Positions 4,992-43,286 of a stretch of 43,286 bases of DNA are shown in pieces (within the stretch, counting starts at the first letter, position 1; the number at the start of each line of letters is the position of its first letter). A program made the translations under genes and the position numbers. The notes under the pieces are model-generated. The model was not told the DNA's origin, made no database searches, and saw only the letters and a program-made list of their open reading frames with translations. The DNA lies in NCBI GenBank assembly GCA_017458675.1, contig JAFTAM010000178.1, positions 1 to 43,286 of the forward strand, given 5' to 3'. Source of the DNA: a bacterium. Its GTDB lineage: Bacteria > Vulcanimicrobiota > Xenobia > Xenobiales > Xenobiaceae.

Positions 4992-5051
4992 AACTGCCGT
5001 TCCTGCCGGTGCTGCTGCGCTGCCGGACTATGATATGACGCTGCTGAAGAT

Positions 5052-5115
5052 GTCATTCCGAGCGCAGCGAAGAATCTGTCGAATTAAGTTTCTTCGCCTT
5101 GCGGCTCAGGATGAC
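5052..5115. repeat. Dispersed imperfect palindrome (copy 1), with half copy 5127-5155
   Basis: The element starts GTCATTCCGAGCGCAGCGAA and ends in the inverted arm GGCTCAGGATGAC; the two arms are imperfect reverse complements around an AT-rich centre. A single left arm (GTCATTCCGAGCGCCGGCGAA) follows from 5127. It belongs to the family also found at 18010, 18084, 26653, 38210 and 38335. The rest of the 4992-5261 gap shows nothing else convincing. Confidence 0.85.
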
Positions 5116-5261
5116 GTGAAGCTGCCGTCATTCCGAGCGCCGGCGAAGATTCTTAAAATGTCGGCAATTATCGCATTTTGCAGGACAGAAAGATATTTCG
5201 GCGGAAGAAAACAGATAAAGTATATTCAGCAGAAAAGTTTTTTTCGTTTCAGGCGGATAAT

Positions 5262-7036: not shown

Positions 7037-8713
7037 ATGTTTAAGAAAAATATTTTTGGTTTTGTGTCGTTTGTGGCTGTCGCCGGTTTAGGATTGAGCC
7101 TGATGGTGAGCGGCTGCGGTACCAGCGGCACTGTGCCGTATCCCGTTGTAAATCCTACGGTTGATCCTACTGTTGAACCTACTGTTGAGCCTACCGAAGA
7201 ACCCACCGATGAACCTACGGTCGAGCCTACCGGCGAACCGACGGCCGAGCCGACCGACGAGCCTACGCCTACCGGCAATACGATCACTTTCAATTATGAG
7301 GGCATCGCGGCCGCCGTAGCCAAGACTGCTGTTCCCGCCAATATTAAAACTGTAAAATACGCTTTTGTCGATGAAGATTATAATGTAATCGGCAAGACTA
7401 AGACTGTCGCCATAGAGAACAATTTGGTAGTTGACGACGAGGATATGGCCTCCGGAGAAATTGCTCCCGAAGCCGTTACCGCTACTGCCGTTTACTATGA
7501 CGCCGATAATAAGGTCGTCGCTCTGGGTATTGATGAAATTTCCTGGACGGCAACGGCTACTAATTCAGTCGGCTTGGTCGACAATCCAACCATTACCGAG
7601 TTAGGCGATAATTACACCTTCAGCGTCGGAACTTCCGCTTATGTAATTAAGCCCGGCGAAGGCCTCAATCTTACCGCCACAGTTACTACTGAAGGCGGCG
7701 AAACTATTGATTTGACTCCCTTTGTCGAGTTTACGATGAGTACTGGCGACGGCGGCGATCCTGCCAAAGTTTTGGTTCCTGACGGCAGCGGCGCTTATAC
7801 CGGCGGAGAATACGGCATAGTTGAGGTCAGCGGCAGCTTTGAAGACGGCGATATGGAAGGCGATTTGGACGGCGAAGTCTATGTTACCGATCAGACCATA
7901 ACCGGCATCACCGTCGAGCCCGAGGACGAGCTTACTCAGGTCGAATTCAGCGACACTGTCAGCGGCTATCCGGTAGTAGTCGTGTCGGATCCCATGGATC
8001 AAACCGGCGCTGATTTCTACGATGACAACGGCAATCTCACTAAGACGGACGTCAATACCGTACCATTTATCGTAAAGGCTAATTACAGCAATATCGAAGG
8101 TAAGGGCCCTTCCCCCGCAGGCGTAGACGTCACTTCTGACGCCAATATCAAGGTCGTTTTCGGCGACGACACCACAGGCGATCCTGATGTTACTGTCGAG
8201 GGCGGAAGTATCACCGTAAACGGTCTGACCAATAGCGACGGCGTCGGTCCCGATCTTTTTAAGGTTTCTGCTTCTTGCACTATCGACGGCAAAACTGTGA
8301 CTACGCCTGATGGTAAAGAGGTTTACCTGGTTGGTACCAAGGCCGGCTGCGGCGTAGTGCTTACCGCTAAAGATCCTTCCGCTCCTCAAGGCGTTTCCAT
8401 GTACGGAACGGCCGCTCCCGGCGACGACGTCGACCTGCACCTGATGGGCTTCATGGAAGGCAGATACGGCGTTTACTACTTCGAGATTCCCGACGATTAT
8501 GTTCCGGAGACCGCGCCTGAGGCTTCCATTGACTATGTCAGTCCCGACGGCGCCGATTTAGGCGAGATCAACCCCGTCGGCGGAGACAGCGCCGTCGATT
8601 ATACGCTCGGCATCGATGATGAAACCAAGGCTACCGGCGCTTCTATCGGCGTCGATACCGAAGGTACGGACCTGCCCGAGGCCAGCGTATTCACTCTGAC
8701 CGTTGAGCATTAA
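7037..8713 (+). CDS. Large acidic lipoprotein with PTxE-repeat stalk
   Basis: A surface or periplasmic lipoprotein of 558 residues from ATG 7037; the frame is open from 6965, but the signal peptide begins at MFKKNIFG. The signal sequence ends in a lipobox LMVSGC, so the mature protein should begin with a lipidated Cys at about residue 28. A stalk of about nine PTxE/D tetrapeptides follows (nucleotides 7154-7267). The remaining 480 residues are acidic, rich in Gly, Asp, Thr and Val, and beta-strand-like, resembling tandem bacterial Ig-like domains, though no specific family could be named. It may be an adhesin or surface-display protein. It lies 92 bases after trxA and is closed by the hairpin at 8720. 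Confidence 0.85.
   Translation: MFKKNIFGFVSFVAVAGLGLSLMVSGCGTSGTVPYPVVNPTVDPTVEPTVEPTEEPTDEPTVEPTGEPTAEPTDEPTPTGNTITFNYEGIAAAVAKTAVPANIKTVKYAFVDEDYNVIGKTKTVAIENNLVVDDEDMASGEIAPEAVTATAVYYDADNKVVALGIDEISWTATATNSVGLVDNPTITELGDNYTFSVGTSAYVIKPGEGLNLTATVTTEGGETIDLTPFVEFTMSTGDGGDPAKVLVPDGSGAYTGGEYGIVEVSGSFEDGDMEGDLDGEVYVTDQTITGITVEPEDELTQVEFSDTVSGYPVVVVSDPMDQTGADFYDDNGNLTKTDVNTVPFIVKANYSNIEGKGPSPAGVDVTSDANIKVVFGDDTTGDPDVTVEGGSITVNGLTNSDGVGPDLFKVSASCTIDGKTVTTPDGKEVYLVGTKAGCGVVLTAKDPSAPQGVSMYGTAAPGDDVDLHLMGFMEGRYGVYYFEIPDDYVPETAPEASIDYVSPDGADLGEINPVGGDSAVDYTLGIDDETKATGASIGVDTEGTDLPEASVFTLTVEH
7154..7267 (+). repeat. 12-bp tandem repeat encoding PTxE tetrapeptides
   Basis: Nine to ten in-frame 12-base units encode Pro-Thr-x-Glu/Asp. 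The units differ at silent and third-residue positions, so the array is fairly old. Length change by whole units would keep frame and only alter stalk length. Confidence 0.85.
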
Positions 8714-17960: not shown

Positions 17961-18009
17961 GCAGGCGAGCCCCGCCAAGCAGTTTGTCATCCTGGCCCTG
18001 TCTTTTATT

Positions 18010-18145
18010 GTCATCCTGAGCCTTCGGCGAAAGATCTGCCGTTTAAAGATTCTTCGCTTCGCTCAGAATGACAGCGTTTTTAGGTATCCTGAGCCGCCGG
18101 CGAAGGATCTGTCGTTTATAGATTCTTCGCTTCGCTCAGAATGAC
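18010..18145. repeat. Two dispersed palindromes in tandem (18010-18072 and 18084-18145)
   Basis: Each copy runs from a GTCATCCTGAGCC-type left arm (GTATCCTGAGCC in the second) through GGCGAA(A/G)GATCT, an AT-rich centre, and a GATTCTTCGCTTCGCTCAGA right arm ending in ATGAC. The two are nearly the same and 11 bases apart. A further left half-arm lies near 17985 and a decayed right-arm fragment near 18150-18168. They fill most of the 319-base gap 17961-18279 between the PLP enzyme and murI. Confidence 0.85.
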
Positions 18146-18242
18146 AGAATAAGAGCTCAGAATAACAGAGTTAAGTCTCTTAATGACAGATAAAGAGGAA
18201 GTTTTTGCTTAAATTAAAATAGAAGCACCGGAAATTTTAGTA

Positions 18243-21240: not shown

Positions 21241-21331
21241 ATTTCCCTGGCTGCTCTTTTATCTGACATTGAAATAGCAGCGAAGAACTATAATAGATAT
21301 TTTGCCTGAGGCTCATGATGACAGAAAGCGC

Positions 21332-21357
21332 TGTCATTCTGAGCGCAGCGAAGAATC
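21332..21357. repeat. Half copy of the dispersed palindrome
   Basis: GTCATTCTGAGCGCAGCGAA followed by GAATCT matches the left arm of the family. The expected right arm is broken: a rearranged TTCCTTCGCAGATTCTG and a stray GTCATGCTGAG (21403) follow. It lies in the gap between anmK and the convergent small secreted-protein gene. Confidence 0.75.
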
Positions 21358-21448
21358 TATAAACGACAGTTCCTTCGCAGATTCTGTGCGCAAGCCTCGT
21401 ACTGTCATGCTGAGTCATATGTGCTGCGCCGGAACAATATATAAGGCT

Positions 21449-21894: not shown

Positions 21895-23385
21895 ATGGAC
21901 GATAAAATAATAGGCGCCGACTGCGGCGGCGAAGACATGAATGATAAAGAACTGGCTGAATTATTTGTCAAAGCGAGCCATAATTTTTTCTTTGGCAAAG
22001 ACTGTTCAGCGGAGAATTGGAAAAAAGGCGTTATATGCTTGCATAAGGCTATTGAGCTTGGCTGTATAGCAGCTTACAGTATGTTAAGTTCGGCATACCT
22101 GCTTTCTGACAAGCAGGAAGATATAGAAAAAGGACTTGAGATTCTCAGGAAAGGCGCTGATTTAGGGAACGCTGACTGTCTGGCGGAATTGGGAAACCTG
22201 TATTTTGACGGTCGCCATGTTGAGAAAGATGCAGTCAAGGCCTTCGAATATTGGAGCAAAGCGGCTGAAAAGGGACATCCGGAGGCCATGTATAAGCTCG
22301 GATATACAGACGGCAATAACGAGCAGTCGGAAGCTATTGAAGCTTTGGTAAGACAGGCGGAAATGGGCAGCAGCCTCAGCTGCCTGGTGTTGGGATATAT
22401 GTATTACAGCGGCGGCGGTCCTGTTGAACAGGATTACAAGAAGGCTTACAGATACTTAAAAAAGTGCGCTGACTGCGACGATGCTATTAAATATAGCATT
22501 TTGGGGTTCATGTACTATCACGGACACTATGTCGCCCGAAATAGAAAGACAGCTTTAAGGTTTTTCAAAAAGGCTGTTAAATGCGGCCAGTCCGAATGTT
22601 TCAATTTATTCGGTGCGGACGTTACAGCAATGGTAGCCGAAGCTGAGCGTTATTTAGGGATGCTGTATTATACAGAAGAAGAACTGATTAAGCCGAATTT
22701 TAAAAAAGCCTTTGAATATTTCAGTTCCTCTTCAAAAAAAGGCTCCGGTGATGCTGAGTTTTTTGTAGGTTTCATGTACTTAAAGGGAGATTATGTCGAG
22801 GCAAACTCAGATGAAGCGGTTAAGCATTTTGAGCACGCGGCAGAAAACAGCACCATATCCGCTTATTTTGTCGGTTCGATGTATTTAGACGGCGCCTTTG
22901 GCGAACCGGACACGGAGAAGGCGGCTTATTATTTGCAAAAGGCTGCTGACGGCGGAAATGACGAGGCCCAATTCAAACTGGCCGGTCTTTTGCTTAATGA
23001 AGACTGCAGTGAGGAGAATATTGATAAGGTTTTGACTTTGCTTAAACGCTCAGCCGATCAGAATAATGTCGACGCTGAATACGCTTTGGGCGCCATATAT
23101 CTGATGCTGTCAGGCAGCATTGAAGAAAATACTGAAAATAACAGAGAAACCGGGCTGAAGTATTTAAAATCTGCAGCACTCCATGAACAGCCGAACGCAT
23201 GCTTTGACTTAGGCCGCATGTATTTGGAAGGCGACGGTATTGAGCAGGATCAGGTTAACGGCTTGAGCCTGATTACTAAGGCGGCTTGCAGCGGGAACAG
23301 CGACGCCATTAAATACATGATGAATTTGGGCAATGAAGAAAACGAAGATAACGATCTTTGTGAAGACGTTGAAGCCGATTCATGA
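21895..23385 (+). CDS. Sel1-like repeat (TPR-type) protein
   Basis: A 496-residue protein made almost wholly of Sel1 repeats, alpha-helical pairs of about 36 residues that form protein-interaction solenoids. About ten to twelve units are seen from residue 30 on, with repeated LGxMYxxG and KAxxYxxKAAxxGxxxA patterns. No signal peptide or membrane segment is present, so it is probably cytoplasmic. The acidic C-terminus (after about 480) is likely disordered. The segment EYWSKAAEKG...AMYKLGY closely matches the two Sel1 proteins at 34362 and 35730, so all three are paralogues. ATG 21895 is used; ATG 21937 is an alternative. A TATAAT at 21847-21852 may be its -10 element, without a clear -35. Confidence 0.88.
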   Translation: MDDKIIGADCGGEDMNDKELAELFVKASHNFFFGKDCSAENWKKGVICLHKAIELGCIAAYSMLSSAYLLSDKQEDIEKGLEILRKGADLGNADCLAELGNLYFDGRHVEKDAVKAFEYWSKAAEKGHPEAMYKLGYTDGNNEQSEAIEALVRQAEMGSSLSCLVLGYMYYSGGGPVEQDYKKAYRYLKKCADCDDAIKYSILGFMYYHGHYVARNRKTALRFFKKAVKCGQSECFNLFGADVTAMVAEAERYLGMLYYTEEELIKPNFKKAFEYFSSSSKKGSGDAEFFVGFMYLKGDYVEANSDEAVKHFEHAAENSTISAYFVGSMYLDGAFGEPDTEKAAYYLQKAADGGNDEAQFKLAGLLLNEDCSEENIDKVLTLLKRSADQNNVDAEYALGAIYLMLSGSIEENTENNRETGLKYLKSAALHEQPNACFDLGRMYLEGDGIEQDQVNGLSLITKAACSGNSDAIKYMMNLGNEENEDNDLCEDVEADS

Positions 23386-34361: not shown

Positions 34362-35534
34362 ATGGATTCAGATGTCTTTTCTGCAGCTCGTGCAGGTAGA
34401 AACGGGGCTTATAAAGGACGCAGGGATTTAGTAAACGTTGTTATTCCTGACGGCCTGAATATTGTCAAAATAGGGAAATATGCTTTTGAAAACTGCAGCA
34501 GATTAACCTCCGTTGCAATAACTGACAGCGTCGTCTTTATAGGCGACAAAGCTTTTAAAGGCTGCAGCAGTCTGGTCTCCGTTGCGATCCCCGACGAAGT
34601 TTACTACATAGGCGAAAGCGCTTTTGAAGACTGCGGGAGCTTAACTTCCGTTAAGATTCCTGATAAAATTATCTCAATAGGCAAAAAAGCTTTTGACGGC
34701 TGCGGCCGTTTAACCGATATTTATTTTCGCGGCAGACACTGCTCGGATTTGTCTGAGTTTGAAAGCTTCGCTCAAAGCTGCGGCGTATCGTACAACTGCG
34801 ACTGTGAGACCTTATTCGATATCGGCATTTCAGAGTTTGTAAAAGGCGAAATTGACAGCGGCTTTGCAGCTTGGCGCAAGGCTCTGAAATATAACGATCC
34901 CGCGGTGTATTACAATTTAGGCCTGAATTACGTTATTCTGGATATTGATGTCAGCGAAGGCATAAAGCTTCTGCATAGAGGCGCCGACGCGCTGGACGAC
35001 AATCTCTGTCAGTATGCTTTGGGAAGTATTTATTTTATGGGGCTTAACGGTGAAGAACCGGATATAATGAAAGCCTATGAGTATTGGGCAAAAGCGGCAG
35101 ATCATAAGAACCCATATGCCTTATTTAAGCTCGGCTACTCGGAAAATATGCCGGAACTCGATATTGTGAAAAACGCTGAATTACTTGGCGGTCTGCGGGA
35201 ATCGGCCACATATACTATGCTGGGATTGATTTATTTAGACGGGTGTACAGAAACCGTAGGCATAAGCGAAGAAATCTTCAGGGAGTTTTATGACAACACC
35301 GTTGAAATAGAAAGAAATTTAAATAAAGCCGTCTGTTTCTTAAAGAAGGGCGTCGATAAAGGCAATACTACAGCTAAATTTTTTTTAGGACGTTTATATT
35401 ATAACGGTGAAGAAGACGTAATAGAAGCGGACCGGAAAAAGGGTCTGAAGCTTCTTTCCGAAGCAGCCGCCGAGGGCTGCGGCGCTGCTGTATATTTTCT
35501 GACCGAAATCGAAGATGACGGCGAGGATGACTAA
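34362..35534 (+). CDS. BspA-type LRR fused to Sel1-repeat protein
   Basis: A 390-residue protein with two interaction modules. Residues about 25-130 hold four LRR_5 (BspA/TpLRR) units of about 23 residues with the repeated pattern IGxxAFxxCxxLxxVxIPDxV. Residues about 155-385 are Sel1 repeats (LGxxYxxG, KAxxYWxKAA). There is no signal peptide, although BspA-type LRRs are usually surface-exposed, so this copy is probably cytoplasmic. An ideal ribosome site (GGAGGTGAT) precedes the ATG. The Sel1 half is clearly homologous to the next gene (35730) over its full length and to the protein at 21895. The LRR module was therefore gained here or lost there. Confidence 0.9.
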   Translation: MDSDVFSAARAGRNGAYKGRRDLVNVVIPDGLNIVKIGKYAFENCSRLTSVAITDSVVFIGDKAFKGCSSLVSVAIPDEVYYIGESAFEDCGSLTSVKIPDKIISIGKKAFDGCGRLTDIYFRGRHCSDLSEFESFAQSCGVSYNCDCETLFDIGISEFVKGEIDSGFAAWRKALKYNDPAVYYNLGLNYVILDIDVSEGIKLLHRGADALDDNLCQYALGSIYFMGLNGEEPDIMKAYEYWAKAADHKNPYALFKLGYSENMPELDIVKNAELLGGLRESATYTMLGLIYLDGCTETVGISEEIFREFYDNTVEIERNLNKAVCFLKKGVDKGNTTAKFFLGRLYYNGEEDVIEADRKKGLKLLSEAAAEGCGAAVYFLTEIEDDGEDD

Positions 35535-35729: not shown

Positions 35730-36566
35730 ATGGACTGTATGCCTGAGATGGGAGCCTCTTGTTTTGAGGATGAAAACTCTGAGCTCGAAGCGATATATAA
35801 ACTTGGCATTGAATATTTGAAGGAAAATGATATGGAAAAATTGGTCTCTTTATGGACCAAAGCGTTAAAATATAATGATTCTAGATTTTATTTATCGTTG
35901 GCAATGTATTATCTTTATAAGAATACTGAAGACAGCAGCCGTAAAGGAATGGAGCTTCTGCATAAGGCAGCCGATGAATTGAATTGTGATTTATGTCAGT
36001 TTGAACTGGGAAATATTTATTTTTCAGGAGCTGACGGTTCTGAACCTGATATTATGAAGGCTCATGAATATTGGTGCAAGGCTGCTGAGCAAGGCAACAA
36101 GGAAGCAATGTATAAGCTCGGCTATTCTGAAAAAGGCGAGAGGCTCGGACTTGCTGAACTTGCCGATACAGTTGAAGGTATCGAAGGAGCCGCCATAAAC
36201 TTGATGTTAGGCATGATCTATTATCATGGCGATGTTGAAGCTGCCGGAGTAAGCGAGAATTTATTCAGAAGCTTTTTCGACAGCGACATGGCGGTAGAAC
36301 GCGATGTTTCAAAAGCTTTATTTTACATACAGAGAGCCATCGATATGGGCTATTCCCAGGCAAAGCTTCAATTGGGAATCATATATTTAATCGGCGAGGA
36401 TGGCGTCATTGAACCGGATCGGGAAAAGGGAATCGGTCTGATTGCTGAAGCTGCGTCCGAAGGCAGCAAAGATGCGCTCGACTTATTGCTTGAGTTAGAC
36501 GAAGACGACTTTGACGGCGATGAAGACGAAGCTGGAGACGACGGCGAAAACGGTGAAAGCGAATAG
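35730..36566 (+). CDS. Sel1-like repeat protein, paralogue of the preceding gene
   Basis: A 278-residue Sel1 solenoid protein. GGAGAA lies 7 bases before the ATG. It aligns end to end with the Sel1 half of the 34362 product: shared segments include KALKYND, EPDIMKAxEYWxKAA, KLGYSE, and near the end EADRKKGLKLLSEAAxEG versus EPDREKGIGLIAEAASEG. The first 25 residues replace the LRR module and show no known motif. The last 30 residues are strongly acidic (Asp/Glu). It is likely a cytoplasmic scaffold with partners unknown. Confidence 0.9.
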   Translation: MDCMPEMGASCFEDENSELEAIYKLGIEYLKENDMEKLVSLWTKALKYNDSRFYLSLAMYYLYKNTEDSSRKGMELLHKAADELNCDLCQFELGNIYFSGADGSEPDIMKAHEYWCKAAEQGNKEAMYKLGYSEKGERLGLAELADTVEGIEGAAINLMLGMIYYHGDVEAAGVSENLFRSFFDSDMAVERDVSKALFYIQRAIDMGYSQAKLQLGIIYLIGEDGVIEPDREKGIGLIAEAASEGSKDALDLLLELDEDDFDGDEDEAGDDGENGESE

Positions 36567-38164: not shown

Positions 38165-38408
38165 TGTCATCCTGATCCTGGGCCCCTGTCATCCTGAGCC
38201 TGGATCCTTGTCATCCTGAGCCTTCAGGCGAAGGATCTATAAAATCCAGTCATTTAAGATTCTTCGCTGCCGCTCAGAATGACAGGACGCAGCGTCCTGA
38301 GCCAGGCCGTTTGTCGTCCTGAGCAGAACCATTTGTCATCCTGAGCCTTCAGGCGAAGGATCTATAAAGTCCAGACAGTTAAGATTCTTCGCTGCCGCTC
38401 AGAATGAC
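38165..38408. repeat. Cluster of dispersed palindromes (38210-38283 and 38335-38408) with extra left arms
   Basis: Two 74-base copies differ at only three positions. Each has the left arm GTCATCCTGAGCCTTCAGGC followed by GAAGGATCT, an AT-rich centre and the right arm GATTCTTCGCTGCCGCTCAG ending in AATGAC. Left arms alone (GTCATCCTGATCC, GTCATCCTGAGCC) lie in direct tandem at 38165 and 38187, and another (GTCGTCCTGAGC) at about 38313. They occupy nearly all of the 295-base gap before the GNAT gene. Confidence 0.9.
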
Positions 38409-38455
38409 AGGACGGCAGCGTCATTATTGTATCTGTCCAATTAGGGGAGCTACAG

Positions 38456-39123: not shown

Positions 39124-39182
39124 GCGCCAAGTATTTTTTTCTGTAAAACTAATTGCGCCATGTTTCTATCTCAGCGGTAAAG

Positions 39183-39191
39183 TGTTATAAT
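39183..39191 (+). promoter_or_regulatory. Extended -10 promoter of the efflux operon
   Basis: TGTTATAAT is a perfect extended -10 element. Transcription from about 39198 gives a 30-base leader before the chosen ATG at 39228, which supports that start over the upstream in-frame ATG at 39153. No good -35 is needed or seen. Confidence 0.65.
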
Positions 39192-39227
39192 GGATGGCAA
39201 AAAAATCAAATTGCGAGTATATTGTCA

Positions 39228-40844
39228 ATGAAATTTAAAGAACGTTTCTTTTGCGCTTTGGCATGTCTGGCGCTATGTGCCGGTGGTCCTGCCTTATGCC
39301 GGGAAGACGGCGCGGACGACGGAAGCATTAAAGTTTCGGAACCTCAAAGCGCCGAAGTCGGTTCGGACGATCGGTATACCGATCAGCTCCCTGCCGATTC
39401 CCCTGATTCGGCAAAAAAATCGGTGGAAGCCAACATCGCCGAGAATCTGAAACAGGAAGCGGCCCAAAGGGGCTACGATTTAGATAATTCGGATATTAAA
39501 AGCGGAGAGGATGCGGTCAATCAGATGCTGCGCTCCGTCAGCGGTCAGTCCGAATTCGATATTGACGATGTTTCCAAAAGCTTTACTTTGGAAAAGAGTA
39601 TAAATTACGCTTTGGAAAACAATCCCGAAGTAAAGAACGCCGATGAAAATATCGTTCAGGCCGGAGCCAGATACAGGCAGGCTCAGAGTATGAAAAACCT
39701 GCAGTTTACGGTAGGGAACAGGCTGACCTATCAGCCGAAGGGCGTCAGCGGCGGCATCGTTACGAACGATCCTCTGGCCAACAGCCTTACCGCTTCGCTT
39801 AAGGCCCTGCTGACCACTTTCGGACGGGTCGAAAATCAGATTGCCGCGGCCTATCTGGAGATTGGCGTCGAATCCCTCAATGCCATGTCGGTGCGGCGCG
39901 AGCTGGTTTATCAAGTCAAGCAGGCTTTTTTCAACCGCGTCAAAGCCGGCTCCAATGTAGACGCGGCGCTGCTTAACGCGGATCTGTGCAAGCAGAGTCT
40001 GGTCGACGCCGATAAGATGTATAAATCCGGCGTCATGGCCTTATACGACGTCATTCAGGCCAATCTGCAGATTACCGACGCCGAGGAGCAGCTGGCTCAG
40101 GCCAATACCTCCCTGGACAGCGCGGACGCCGAATTTTTCAAGCTGCTGGCGCTGAATAACCCCACTGCCGACAGATATTCCCTGCATGTTATTTCTCCGC
40201 CGCCCATAGAGGTAGATCCTCAGTGCACGGTGGCGGATTTAAAGAAGCTGGCCGCGGCCAGGCGCTACGAGCTGCTCAGTCTGGATCGCAGCATTGAGGT
40301 CCTGAAGAAGAGCAGGGAAGCGGCTGAGGCCAACAACAGACCGGAAATTTATCTTTCCGCCGACTATATATTTTCACCGGGCTACCACACGCTGCCCTGC
40401 AGCAATTATCAGCTCAATCTGAACATCAACTGGAACGCCTGGGACGGCGGCGCCAAAAATGCTCAGCTCGACGAGATAGATTCTCAGATCGACGCTTTGA
40501 CCTATTCCCGCGAAAGTCTCTGCGATACTATCTATTTAGATGTCGAAAAGGCCTGGCTCAATTTTAATCTTACCGATATAACCATGAAGACCACCAAAAA
40601 CAAGGTCGAATCGGCCTGGGTCTTCCATGAAATGGCCCGTCAGCGTTTTCTCAACGGTTTGGGTACCTCTCTGGAAGTTCAGCAGGCTCTGACCAGCTTA
40701 AACAACGCCCGTCTGTCCTTTATTTCGGCCTGCTGCGACCGCGAGCTGGCCTTTGCGGCCCTTGAATACAGCGTGGGCGTGGATTTCCCCAACCGCAGAC
40801 TTTCCGTAACTCCGGAGCTTTTAAAGGCAGAGGAAATAGATTAG
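39228..40844 (+). CDS. TolC-family outer membrane efflux protein
   Basis: The outer-membrane channel of a tripartite efflux system; 538 residues. ATG 39228 starts a signal peptide (about 1-24, ending ALC). Residues 25-110 are an acidic, poorly structured extension. Two repeated outer-membrane-efflux halves follow: the first starts near SINYALENNPEVKNADENI, and the second near LAAARRYELLSLDRSIEVLK, with long helical stretches rich in Ala/Gln/Glu. The N-terminal extension is longer than in E. coli TolC. The adaptor gene follows after 22 bases. No ribosome site is obvious. Confidence 0.92.
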   Translation: MKFKERFFCALACLALCAGGPALCREDGADDGSIKVSEPQSAEVGSDDRYTDQLPADSPDSAKKSVEANIAENLKQEAAQRGYDLDNSDIKSGEDAVNQMLRSVSGQSEFDIDDVSKSFTLEKSINYALENNPEVKNADENIVQAGARYRQAQSMKNLQFTVGNRLTYQPKGVSGGIVTNDPLANSLTASLKALLTTFGRVENQIAAAYLEIGVESLNAMSVRRELVYQVKQAFFNRVKAGSNVDAALLNADLCKQSLVDADKMYKSGVMALYDVIQANLQITDAEEQLAQANTSLDSADAEFFKLLALNNPTADRYSLHVISPPPIEVDPQCTVADLKKLAAARRYELLSLDRSIEVLKKSREAAEANNRPEIYLSADYIFSPGYHTLPCSNYQLNLNINWNAWDGGAKNAQLDEIDSQIDALTYSRESLCDTIYLDVEKAWLNFNLTDITMKTTKNKVESAWVFHEMARQRFLNGLGTSLEVQQALTSLNNARLSFISACCDRELAFAALEYSVGVDFPNRRLSVTPELLKAEEID

Positions 40845-40866: not shown

Positions 40867-42267
40867 ATGAATTTAACAGATATTTTTTACGGTTCAAAGG
40901 GTAAGTTCTTCGGTGCCGCTCTGGCTCTGGCTCTGAGTACCGGCATGTTTGTCGGCGGCTGCAGCGGCGACGGCGGTTCCGGCAGCGGCGGTCAGGGGGA
41001 ACAGGGCGAGGCGAGGCAGGAAATTCCCGCGGCTGACGAGCAGTCCAATGTCGAAGGCGGCGAACAGGCTCAAGCTCAGGCTGCCGCTCCGATGGTGATA
41101 GCGGAGAAGGTGACAACTCAGGAAACTCATTTCAGCAAAGAATGGCCGGCAGAGACCAAATCAGGCGACGAGGTCAACGTACAGGCCAGAGTCGAGGGAA
41201 CGCTGGAGAGATTTAATTTTACAGAAGGTATGGGAGTAACGCAGGGGCAGGTGCTGTTTACCATTGACGACGCTCCCTACCGGGCGGCCCTTCAGGCCGC
41301 GCAGGCGCAGGTATCCAAGGCCAAGGCCGATCTGGAATATGCCAAAACTCAGGTTGACGTGCTTAAGGCCGAAGCCGATTTAGCTTCTGCCAAGACCGAG
41401 TTAAACAGAGCTCAGCAGGATGTGGACCGTTATAAGCCTTTGGTTGAGAGCGGCACTATTGCCAGACAGACTCTCGACAACGCTATAGCTCAGCGCGATG
41501 TGGCTCAGGCTCAGGTTAACGCCAGCAAGGCCACTCTGGAAAATACCAAACTTTCCGATCGCTCCAACATTGATATCGCCGCCGCCAATCTGGAAGCGGC
41601 CAGAGCCAATGTCACTCAGGCGGAATTAAATATCGGCTACTGCACGATAACCTCTCCCATAACCGGCGTAATCGGCAAGCTCAACGTCTATCCCGGAAAC
41701 CTGGTCGGCAAGGCCGGGAGCACCGAGCCTCTGGTTACCATTTCCAAGCTCGATCCCATGTATGTAACTTTCAGCTTAACTGAAAAAGAATACTTATATA
41801 TTATGGAGCATAGAAATGAAGAAGTCGGGGGCGCAGATATAGAGCTTCTGCTTTCCGACGGCTCGGTTTATCCTCATAAGGGTTCCTTCAATATGCTGGA
41901 GCGTACTATGGACTCGTCTACCGGTACTATCGGCGTCCGCATGGTCTTCCCCAACCCGGATTTCGTTCTGCGTGAGGGACAGTTCGGACGTCTGCGCATT
42001 ACCGCGCATCAAGCAGATAAAGTTATAGTAATTCCGCAGAAAGCGGTCGTTACCACTCAGTCCGATCATAGCGTCTATATCGTCGGTCCCAACAATATTG
42101 TGGAATCGCGCGCTATAAAGCTGGGAGAGCCTATAGACAGCAGCTTTATAGTTGAATCTGGTCTCAAAGAGGGCGAGACGATAATCGTGGACGGCATCCA
42201 GAAGGTCATGGTAGGCGCTCCCTGCAATCCTTCGATTTCTGAAAAACGGCCCGTTATCAATCCCTGA
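40867..42267 (+). CDS. RND efflux periplasmic adaptor (membrane fusion) lipoprotein
   Basis: The AcrA/MexA-type adaptor linking the inner-membrane pump to the TolC channel; 466 residues. The signal sequence ends in a lipobox (FVGGC) with the lipidated Cys32. A Gly/Gln-rich linker runs to about 75. The lipoyl half-motif QARVEGTLERFNFTEGMGVTQGQVLFTID is at about 103-135. A long alpha-hairpin of Ala/Gln/Lys helices follows (about 140-250), then TSPITGVIGKLNVYPGNLV, LDPMYVTFSLTEKEYL and the membrane-proximal domain. AAGGAG (40855-40860) lies 6 bases before the ATG. The pump gene begins 272 bases later, an unusually wide gap filled with repeats. Confidence 0.96.
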   Translation: MNLTDIFYGSKGKFFGAALALALSTGMFVGGCSGDGGSGSGGQGEQGEARQEIPAADEQSNVEGGEQAQAQAAAPMVIAEKVTTQETHFSKEWPAETKSGDEVNVQARVEGTLERFNFTEGMGVTQGQVLFTIDDAPYRAALQAAQAQVSKAKADLEYAKTQVDVLKAEADLASAKTELNRAQQDVDRYKPLVESGTIARQTLDNAIAQRDVAQAQVNASKATLENTKLSDRSNIDIAAANLEAARANVTQAELNIGYCTITSPITGVIGKLNVYPGNLVGKAGSTEPLVTISKLDPMYVTFSLTEKEYLYIMEHRNEEVGGADIELLLSDGSVYPHKGSFNMLERTMDSSTGTIGVRMVFPNPDFVLREGQFGRLRITAHQADKVIVIPQKAVVTTQSDHSVYIVGPNNIVESRAIKLGEPIDSSFIVESGLKEGETIIVDGIQKVMVGAPCNPSISEKRPVINP

Positions 42268-42271
42268 TTGT

Positions 42272-42462
42272 CAATACTGTCAGTTAAATAAGTCATTGAT
42301 ATTTACGTATTGAACATATCGTCAATATTATCGTGCTGAGCAAAGTTGCCAATGCTGTCAATTAAACAAATCGTTGATATTGTCGTATTGAACATATCGT
42401 CAATATTATCGTGCTGAGCAAAGTTGCCGATACTGTCAGTTAAGTAAGTTATCGATATTGTC
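42272..42462. repeat. 78-bp tandem repeat array (about 2.4 units) inside the efflux operon
   Basis: Units begin at 42272, 42350 and 42428. The first two are nearly identical along 78 bases (for example GAACATATCGTCAATATTAT in both); the third is a partial unit of about 35 bases. Each full unit contains TCGTGCTGAGCAAAG, which resembles the arm of the dispersed palindrome family. It starts 5 bases after the adaptor stop codon. Confidence 0.88.
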
Positions 42463-42473
42463 ATCCCGATTTT

Positions 42474-42500
42474 GTCATCCTGAGCGAAGCGAAGGATCTT
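42474..42500. repeat. Half copy of the dispersed palindrome before the pump gene
   Basis: GTCATCCTGAGCGAAGCGAA followed by GGATCTT matches the left arm. No right arm follows before the pump start at 42540. Confidence 0.75.
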
Positions 42501-42539
42501 AGTTCAGTTTTAAAATAAAATTTTCCGGTGAGAAAAGTT

Positions 42540-43286
42540 TTGGCTAAATTTTTTATTCACCGTCCGGTGCTGGCGATGGTGATTTCGCTGGTTATTCTGA
42601 TAGCCGGCGCGGTCTGTATACCGAATCTGCCCATCGCTCAATATCCTGACATCTGTCCTCCTGTAATTCAGGTGACCGCTTCCTACACCGGCGCAAACGC
42701 TCAGGTGCTGGAGGAAACGGTGGCTTCGCCGATTGAACAGCAGGTAAACGGCGCCGAAGGCATGCTGTACATGCGTTCTGTCTGCACTAACCAGGGCGTG
42801 TATGTTCTGCAGATCACTTTCGATCTATCCAGAGATCAGGACCTGGCGATGGTCGACGTGCAGAACCGGGTTAATCAGGCCGCGCCTCTGCTGCCGACCG
42901 AGGTAAGTCAGTCCGGCGTTACGGTAAAGAAGCAGTCTACGCAGAACCTGGTCTATATCAGTCTTTATTCAGAAGACGGCTCCCGTGACTCGCTGTTCCT
43001 GAGCAATTATGCCACGATCAATATTATCGACCAGTTGGCCCGTATTAACGGCGTAGGTTCGGCTTCGATCATGGTTGGACAGCGCGACTATTCGATGCGC
43101 TTATGGGTTGAGCCCGACAAGCTGGCCAAGCTGGGCGTCACCTGCGACGATATTCTTAATGCGGTACAGACTCAGAGCGTACAGGCCGCCGCCGGTACCA
43201 TCGGCGATCCGCCTCAGCCGCCGGGCGTTTCCTTTTCTTATCCTGTCAATGTACACGGACGTCTGACAACTCCTCAAGAATTTGGA
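42540..43286 (+). CDS. RND efflux pump inner-membrane permease, HAE1/AcrB family (5' part, runs off window)
   Basis: The first 249 codons of an AcrB-like proton-drug antiporter; the frame is open to the window end. TTG 42540 is the likely start, with GGTGAG (42527-42532) 7 bases upstream; GTG 42528 is in frame and would add four residues. The sequence follows AcrB closely: AKFFIHRPVLAMVI (first helix start), NLPIAQYPDICPPVIQVTASYTGANAQ, SPIEQQVNGAEGMLYM, VDVQNRVNQAAPLLPTEV, YSMRLWVEPDKLAKLGVT, and LTTPQEFG matching AcrB TSTEEFG. These form TM1 and the PN1/PN2 porter subdomains. The expected full length is about 1030-1050 residues, so about three quarters lie outside the window. Confidence 0.96.
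   Translation, partial: MAKFFIHRPVLAMVISLVILIAGAVCIPNLPIAQYPDICPPVIQVTASYTGANAQVLEETVASPIEQQVNGAEGMLYMRSVCTNQGVYVLQITFDLSRDQDLAMVDVQNRVNQAAPLLPTEVSQSGVTVKKQSTQNLVYISLYSEDGSRDSLFLSNYATINIIDQLARINGVGSASIMVGQRDYSMRLWVEPDKLAKLGVTCDDILNAVQTQSVQAAAGTIGDPPQPPGVSFSYPVNVHGRLTTPQEFG

What the first reader, a model, noticed from the sequence alone, without database searches (positions are those of the whole stretch)
42268..42539. 78-bp tandem array splits the adaptor and pump genes of an RND operon
In most RND operons the adaptor and pump genes are adjacent. Here 272 bases of tandem repeat plus a half palindrome intervene. Unit number could alter mRNA stability or read-through and so the ratio of adaptor to pump, and thus drug tolerance.
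Basis: partly seen in the sequence, partly recalled or inferred. Interest (0 to 1): 0.5.

Follow-up and report, generated by a model that had tools for sequence, protein, structure and literature searches.

The report
Decayed REP-like repeat cluster in operon
The repeat array between the two efflux-pump genes is real, but it is most likely one worn-out cluster of a short palindrome that is scattered through this one bacterium's genome, so it looks more like repeat DNA in a tolerant gap than a purpose-built switch.

Summary
In detail: a 78-bp x 2.5 array (42268-42462) and an intact 27-bp imperfect palindrome (42473-42499) lie in the 272 bp between adaptor stop and pump start (TTG 42540). The "half palindrome" is a complete dispersed REP-like element, TGTCAT[T/C]CTGAGC...GCGAAG[A/G]ATCT: 368 copies at <=3 mismatches in this genome, none in seven family members. 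In 443 kb, 120 of 130 copies lie outside ORFs of 150+ aa, many in BIME-like clusters; other clusters form 72-, 73-, 78- and 127-bp arrays. Each 78-bp unit has three 26-bp sub-units, two still matching the element's front half, so the array is probably a decayed cluster of the same family. It did not split the operon: the two nearest relatives have a 133-134-bp spacer with neither array nor element, whereas 19 of 20 other loci have abutting genes. The array folds no better than shuffles and no terminator-like site was found. Regulation by unit number is untested. Most likely this is lineage-specific repeat DNA in an already open spacer, with at most a modest mRNA effect. The element resembles CGTC/TGTC-tagged REPs but differs in loop, tail and stem.

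The parts
39153..40844 (+). outer-membrane efflux gene (OEP/TolC-like), upstream gene of the RND cluster
   Evidence: Pfam OEP E 1.7e-37; start codon as listed mechanically
40867..42267 (+). RND periplasmic adaptor (membrane fusion) gene, lipoprotein-like N-terminus
   Evidence: TIGR01730 251 bits over cut-off 94.9; the lipoprotein reading is by eye
42268..42462 (+). 78-bp tandem array, 2.5 copies, each of three 26-bp sub-units
   Evidence: TRF score 306 for period 78, plus a period-26 row of score 93; shuffles at most 63
42379..42393 (+). sub-unit of copy 2 still resembling the front half of the dispersed element (ATTGTCGTATTGAAC); copy 1 counterpart 42301-42315
   Evidence: PWM 4.2 bits, but the copy 1 counterpart scores -6.2; independent PWM and permuted controls
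42405..42419 (+). sub-unit of copy 2 resembling the front half of the element (ATTATCGTGCTGAGC); identical copy 1 counterpart 42327-42341
   Evidence: PWM 10.3 bits; controls
42457..42471 (+). degenerate half element (ATTGTCATCCCGATT) leading into the intact element
   Evidence: PWM 8.5 bits
42473..42499 (+). intact REP-like element TGTCATCCTGAGCGAAGCGAAGGATCT
   Evidence: matches to the family
42493..42539 (+). pump-proximal segment alignable to the spacer of the same-genus relative (its first 7 bp lie inside the element), with SD-like GGTGAG at 42527
   Evidence: local alignment score 36, p 0.008 against G001, though the best of 500 shuffles reached 41; p 0.086 against G004; SD read by eye
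42540..43286 (+). RND pump gene (AcrB-like), start TTG, runs off the end of the window
   Evidence: ACR_tran 233.9 bits; conserved start codon; window is contig C131 from its base 1 to 43286
38165..38415 (.). another cluster of the same element in the window, with 22-bp half-element arrays (limits approximate)
   Evidence: TRF, sequence
17983..18182 (.). another cluster of the same element in alternating orientation (limits approximate)
21310..21415 (.). another copy of the element with diverged neighbours (limits approximate)
5051..5154 (.). another cluster of diverged copies (limits approximate)

Best explanation
The spacer holds a decayed, tandemly expanded cluster of a dispersed REP-like palindromic element, in the manner of a BIME. 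The element is abundant in this lineage and was found in none of its near relatives. Here it sits in a spacer that the near relatives also have, and the upstream ~95 bp of their spacer is no longer recognisable. Half elements repeated head to tail about every 26 bp, three of them were then duplicated as a 78-bp unit, and the array decayed, while one intact element remains next to the pump (inferred order). Functionally it is most likely a tolerated passenger. The operon is probably still read through; the intact hairpin could modestly protect or expose the adaptor mRNA end. Shown: element, copies, array, absence in relatives. Inferred: descent of the array from the element, order of events, neutrality, any RNA effect.
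For: Element core: 197 exact copies in the own genome, 0 for the reversed control, 0 in all 17 other genomes of the same genus, family, order or class that were searched; 368 at <=3 mismatches against 0 in seven family members. The unit matches element PWMs built without the window: p 0.001 (best two) and 0.0005 (26-bp phase) in 2000 dinucleotide shuffles; with a second PWM, 0.05% (two sub-units 26 bp apart), 0.1% (best one) and 0.25% (three in phase) of 2000 column-permuted PWMs reach the score. Other clusters in the same genome form 72-, 73-, 78- and 127-bp arrays and 21-25-bp arrays; 10 of 21 same-strand neighbour spacings are 21-25 bp. 26 of 47 classifiable clusters lie between co-directional genes, so such a site is usual; the baseline is 119 of 184 gaps. 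Array absent from the relatives' 133-134-bp spacers.
Against: One of the three 26-bp sub-units does not score as an element, and one of the two that do scores only in copy 2, not copy 1. The 78-bp unit has no second copy in the genome, so its descent rests on a short match tested after I had seen it. No mobilising enzyme was found: no Y1_Tnp in this 90%-complete genome; other transposases were not sought. Loss of the relatives' upstream spacer part could be divergence rather than replacement. The relatives are incomplete assemblies (G001 86%, G004 88%).
Confidence: 0.72

Rival explanations
1. The spacer is a real mRNA-stability element: array plus hairpin set the adaptor:pump ratio as the structure between malE and malF does, and unit number tunes it. 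This does not exclude the origin given above, so the odds overlap.
For: An intergenic RNA structure protecting malE upstream of malF is established in E. coli (PMC5927463, passages; that it is a REP is recalled and fits a reference title there). The relatives' spacers are structured (z -1.76 and -2.92); the intact element can form a hairpin (-7.0 kcal/mol).
Against: Spacer with array not more structured than shuffles (z -0.57); one unit z 0.18 and the intact hairpin alone z -0.21; array copies 10% diverged; no data on variation.
Confidence: 0.15
2. An unrelated minisatellite that arose by slippage inside an AT-rich spacer; the neighbouring palindrome is coincidental.
For: The unit has no other copy in the genome, and one sub-unit is unlike the element.
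Against: Two sub-units in phase match the element PWM beyond permuted and shuffled controls; half-element runs leading into an intact element on the same strand occur elsewhere in the window.
Confidence: 0.2
3. The array gives the pump its own promoters: each of the two full copies holds TTNNCG-N18-TATTAT.
For: 9-of-12 promoter-like sites at 42302 and 42380; none in the relatives' junctions.
Against: Four sites against 1.5 +/- 1.4 in shuffles; two of the four overlap each other on the other strand; the two forward ones come from one duplicated motif. Whether this sigma-70 consensus holds in this phylum was not tested.
Confidence: 0.07

Closest known systems
CGTC-tagged REPs (Di Nocera et al. 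2013, PMC3733652)
   Same: CGTC/TGTC tag, stem opening with A-T then T-A, intergenic, high copy in some genomes, pairs, several phyla, no dedicated transposase found
   Different: Here the innermost stretch is mostly 3, 5 or 6 nt, the ending is TCT not CCA, a tandem G.A mismatch interrupts the stem, and clusters are common rather than rare
BIMEs of E. coli and RAYT-associated REPs/REPINs
   Same: alternating or repeated palindromes in intergenic mosaics
   Different: No Y1/RAYT gene found here, and the tag is TGTC, not GTAG (class descriptions from PMC3733652 and the abstract start of PMC2817692 in a search listing)
malE-malF intergenic structure
   Same: repeat or structure between two genes of a transporter operon
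   Different: There a protective effect on malE is measured (PMC5927463, passages); here nothing is measured and the array is not specially structured

Membership tests
CGTC-tagged REP superfamily | unpaired tag CGTC (often TGTC) | tested here: met
   The consensus tag is TGTC. In one search first letters gave TGTC 76, CGTC 3, AGTC 1 of 80, but the search itself required GTCA, so only the first letter was free. Rule
CGTC-tagged REP superfamily | 8-9 bp stem starting A-T, T-A | tested here: inconclusive
   Stem begins A-T, T-A and spans 9 positions, but positions 6 and 7 are a tandem G.A mismatch (GA in 76 of 80 on each side; folds)
CGTC-tagged REP superfamily | loop of 4-5 nt | tested here: not met
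   Stretch between the fixed GC and GC: 3 nt in 34, 6 in 17, 5 in 16, 4 in 8, 7 in 3, 2 and 1 in one each, of 80; longer ones may hold further pairs
CGTC-tagged REP superfamily | tail fitting CCA | tested here: not met
   Last three bases TCT in 70 of 80, i.e. the final stem T followed by CT
CGTC-tagged REP superfamily | no associated transposase | tested here: inconclusive
   No PF01797 match in the own genome; other transposase families and the neighbours of the copies were not examined
REP/BIME (general) | short palindrome, high copy, mostly extragenic, clustered | tested here: met
   120 of 130 copies outside ORFs of >=150 aa, 33 of 62 clusters with two or more copies; third stem pair C-G 38, T-A 39, other 3 of 80. 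The fold of the window's copy is not better than shuffles
RAYT-mobilised GTAG REP (REPIN) | cognate RAYT gene | tested here: not met
   0 Y1_Tnp matches in G000, 90.38% complete
RAYT-mobilised GTAG REP (REPIN) | GTAG tag | tested here: not met
   tag is TGTC in the window copy and in the copies listed and counted
malE-malF-type stabiliser | measured protection of the upstream mRNA | not testable with these tools
   no expression data

The most novel reading that the evidence does not exclude
A REP-like family with tandem G.A mismatches and ultra-stable GNA loops, spreading without a RAYT, has overwritten a structured RNA spacer between RND adaptor and pump and now sets their ratio in this lineage, with array length as an adjustable part.
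Probability: 0.08. Interest if true: 0.6.

Novelty: new variant of a known kind. Interest (0 to 1): 0.3.

Why it matters
It moves the question from a drug-pump switch to a genome-wide repeat family in a little-studied lineage. The family has hundreds of copies in one species and none found in its same-genus relative, so its spread looks recent and its unknown mover could be sought. If in-operon copies do change mRNA balance, this spacer and its repeat-free relatives form a natural before-and-after pair.

Tried and rejected
Homology of the array to the relatives' spacer was not found: local alignments of the array part gave p 0.75 (G001) and 0.34 (G004); only the last 47 bp align, to G001 at p 0.008 and to G004 at 0.086. 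A specially folded array was rejected. No terminator-like site in the window spacer or in the G001 junction; one in the G004 junction starts at the ribosome-binding site and runs into the pump gene, so it is not in the spacer proper. A known RNA family: no Rfam match in window, L041 or L042. The 78-bp array elsewhere: no second copy in the genome, none among plasmids. The G001 spacer elsewhere: among seven genomes searched only in G001 itself, G004 not being among them. A RAYT mover: none. Enrichment between convergent genes: odds ratio 2.0, p 0.088, so not claimed. Conserved RNA pairs in the two relatives' spacers: 1 of 32 predicted pairs changed on both sides, and two sequences are too few. 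Literature: the element's letters were sought and peptide readings of it. One search found no paper and one unrelated paper; of 48 papers holding a term I saw 20 titles and abstract starts, none about repeats, and opened none. So I do not claim that the element is undescribed. Searches gave nothing that I used.

Full report
What is there. The window is bases 1-43,286 of contig C131 of a 196-contig, 90% complete assembly of 3.28 Mb. Of the two nearest loci by the adaptor protein, one record is titled goat rumen and the other RUG807 (rumen by recall); wider ones include records named UBP9. So the host is inferred to be a gut bacterium of that lineage. An OEP/TolC-like gene, an RND adaptor and an AcrB-like pump lie in order. 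Between adaptor stop (42267) and pump start (TTG 42540) lie 272 bp. TRF finds 42268-42462 as 78 bp x 2.5 copies, score 306, with a 26-bp sub-period; 1000 shuffles gave at most 63.

The palindrome is a dispersed element. TGTCATCCTGAGCGAAGCGAAGGATCT (42473-42499) belongs to a family. The 17-base core GTCATYCTGAGCGMAGC occurs 92 + 105 times in the own genome, against 0 for the reversed pattern. It is absent from all 17 other genomes of genus, family, order and class in that search, and present in 5 of the 40 further phylum members, in 1-13 copies. With up to 3 mismatches over 25 bases there are 368 copies, and none in seven family members. Similar sequence lies on eight plasmid records (Planktothrix, Phocaeicola, Spirosoma, Gloeothece) and in one phage record, at weak E-values (1e-3 to 6e-2).

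Anatomy. In 443 kb (window plus 20 stretches of 20 kb from long contigs named by earlier searches, a sample that leans towards copies) 130 copies at <=1 mismatch stand against 0 reversed; 10 lie in ORFs of 150 aa or more, which cover 79% of the bases. They form 62 clusters, 33 with two or more copies. Of 47 clusters between two ORFs, 26 are between co-directional, 13 convergent and 8 divergent genes (7 at edges and 8 inside ORFs set aside); all intergenic gaps of 60 nt or more divide 119, 29 and 36. Of 80 full elements, 76 begin TGTC (the search required GTCA); the third stem pair is C-G in 38, T-A in 39 and neither in 3; a tandem G.A step is kept in 76 of 80 on each side; 32 of the 34 three-base loops are GCA (23) or GAA (9). 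The filter there allowed two departures from the C-G form, so it did not favour the compensated pair; two subfamilies by descent would also give this pattern. d(GCGAAGC) and GNA loops are known as very stable DNA hairpins (passages and reference titles of PMC6895277), but the fold of the window's copy is not better than shuffles, as DNA (z -0.61, 53 of 200 as good) or RNA (z -0.21, 73 of 200).

Where the array comes from. In copy 2 of the 78-bp unit, ATTGTCGTATTGAAC and ATTATCGTGCTGAGC lie 26 bp apart and match the element's front half. With a PWM from 123 instances outside the window, the best site reached p 0.005, the best two 0.001 and the 26-bp phase sum 0.0005 against 2000 dinucleotide shuffles. 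With a second PWM from 113 instances in L119-L138, 0.05-0.25% of 2000 column-permuted PWMs reached the observed values, and the reversed PWM scored far lower. Against this: I had seen the resemblance before testing, I tested copy 2, the third sub-unit does not score, and in copy 1 the first of the two has decayed further (-6.2 bits). Elsewhere in the sample, clusters of the element form arrays of 127 x 2.5 (L119), 72 x 2.2 (L120), 78 x 4.2 (L122) and 73 x 3.4 (L132), and several of 21-25 bp, among 80 TRF rows of which most are other repeats (the 72-bp one was missed by the script's motif flag and is by eye). Of 21 same-strand neighbour spacings, 10 are 21-25 bp. In the window, 38165-38223 shows half elements every 22 bp running into a full element, the same layout as here.

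History of the junction. Outside the two nearest relatives, 19 of 20 loci examined have the pump start, or the codon aligned to it, at -1 to 11 bp from the adaptor stop; in L056 the pump hit was unusable. Seven more distant loci (L063-L069) were only: five without a pump hit, L066 abutting, L068 with a gap of about 18 bp or more. G001 (same genus) and G004 (same family) have 133 and 134 bp, with neither array nor element. Their two spacers align with each other (score 152, shuffles at most 38). The window aligns only over its last 47 bp, 7 of them inside the element: score 36, p 0.008 against G001 (best shuffle 41), p 0.086 against G004. So the spacer probably came first and the repeats later. 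The relatives' spacers are somewhat more structured than shuffles (G004 z -1.76, 16 of 200 as good; G001 z -2.92, 1 of 200); the window's is not (z 0.18 for one unit, 113 of 200 as good; z -0.57 for the whole, 25 of 100). The SD-like sequence differs too: GGGAGGAAAG in the relatives, GGTGAGAAAAG here (by eye).

Function. An intergenic RNA structure protects malE mRNA in E. coli (PMC5927463, passages), and REPs can lower translation when fewer than 16 nt from a stop codon (an earlier study as told in PMC12306157, section 8). Here the intact element begins 205 nt after the adaptor stop, so the translation effect is not expected. A protective effect is possible but unmeasured. The simplest reading is tolerated repeat DNA. 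Unit number is known from one assembly; with diverged copies in 195 bp a collapse seems unlikely but was not tested.

Family. The closest known class is the CGTC-tagged REPs: tag often TGTC, stem starting AT, no dedicated transposase, mostly intergenic (PMC3733652: abstract, passages and section 15). Loop length and tail do not meet that description, and the stem is interrupted, so I do not file it as a member. No Y1_Tnp gene was found in the own genome, whereas 4 of the 15 genomes searched had one. I call it a new variant of a known kind and give it moderate-to-low interest.

Noticed in passing
L041:2944-3077 and L042:2556-2688: In the two nearest relatives the adaptor-pump spacer is conserved and looks structured, with a predicted stem-loop that reaches into the pump's ribosome-binding site; a possible control element of its own.
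   Followed up: partly
window 42527-42540: The pump's SD-like sequence looks weaker here (GGTGAGAAAAG) than in relatives (GGGAGGAAAG).
   Followed up: no
L122:2711-3637 and neighbouring arrays: Long 69-bp tandem repeats that look like coding repeats, leucine-rich and BspA-like by eye; a similar ORF at window 34362-35534.
   Followed up: no
window 7154-7267: 12-bp coding repeat giving PTxEPT-type runs in a lipoprotein-like ORF.
   Followed up: no
window 21895-23385, 34362-35534, 35730-36566: Three ORFs with Sel1-like repeats by eye.
   Followed up: no
G000 against G001: The own assembly is 3.28 Mb and the same-genus one 1.9 Mb; the element is in hundreds of copies in one and was not found in the other.
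   Followed up: partly
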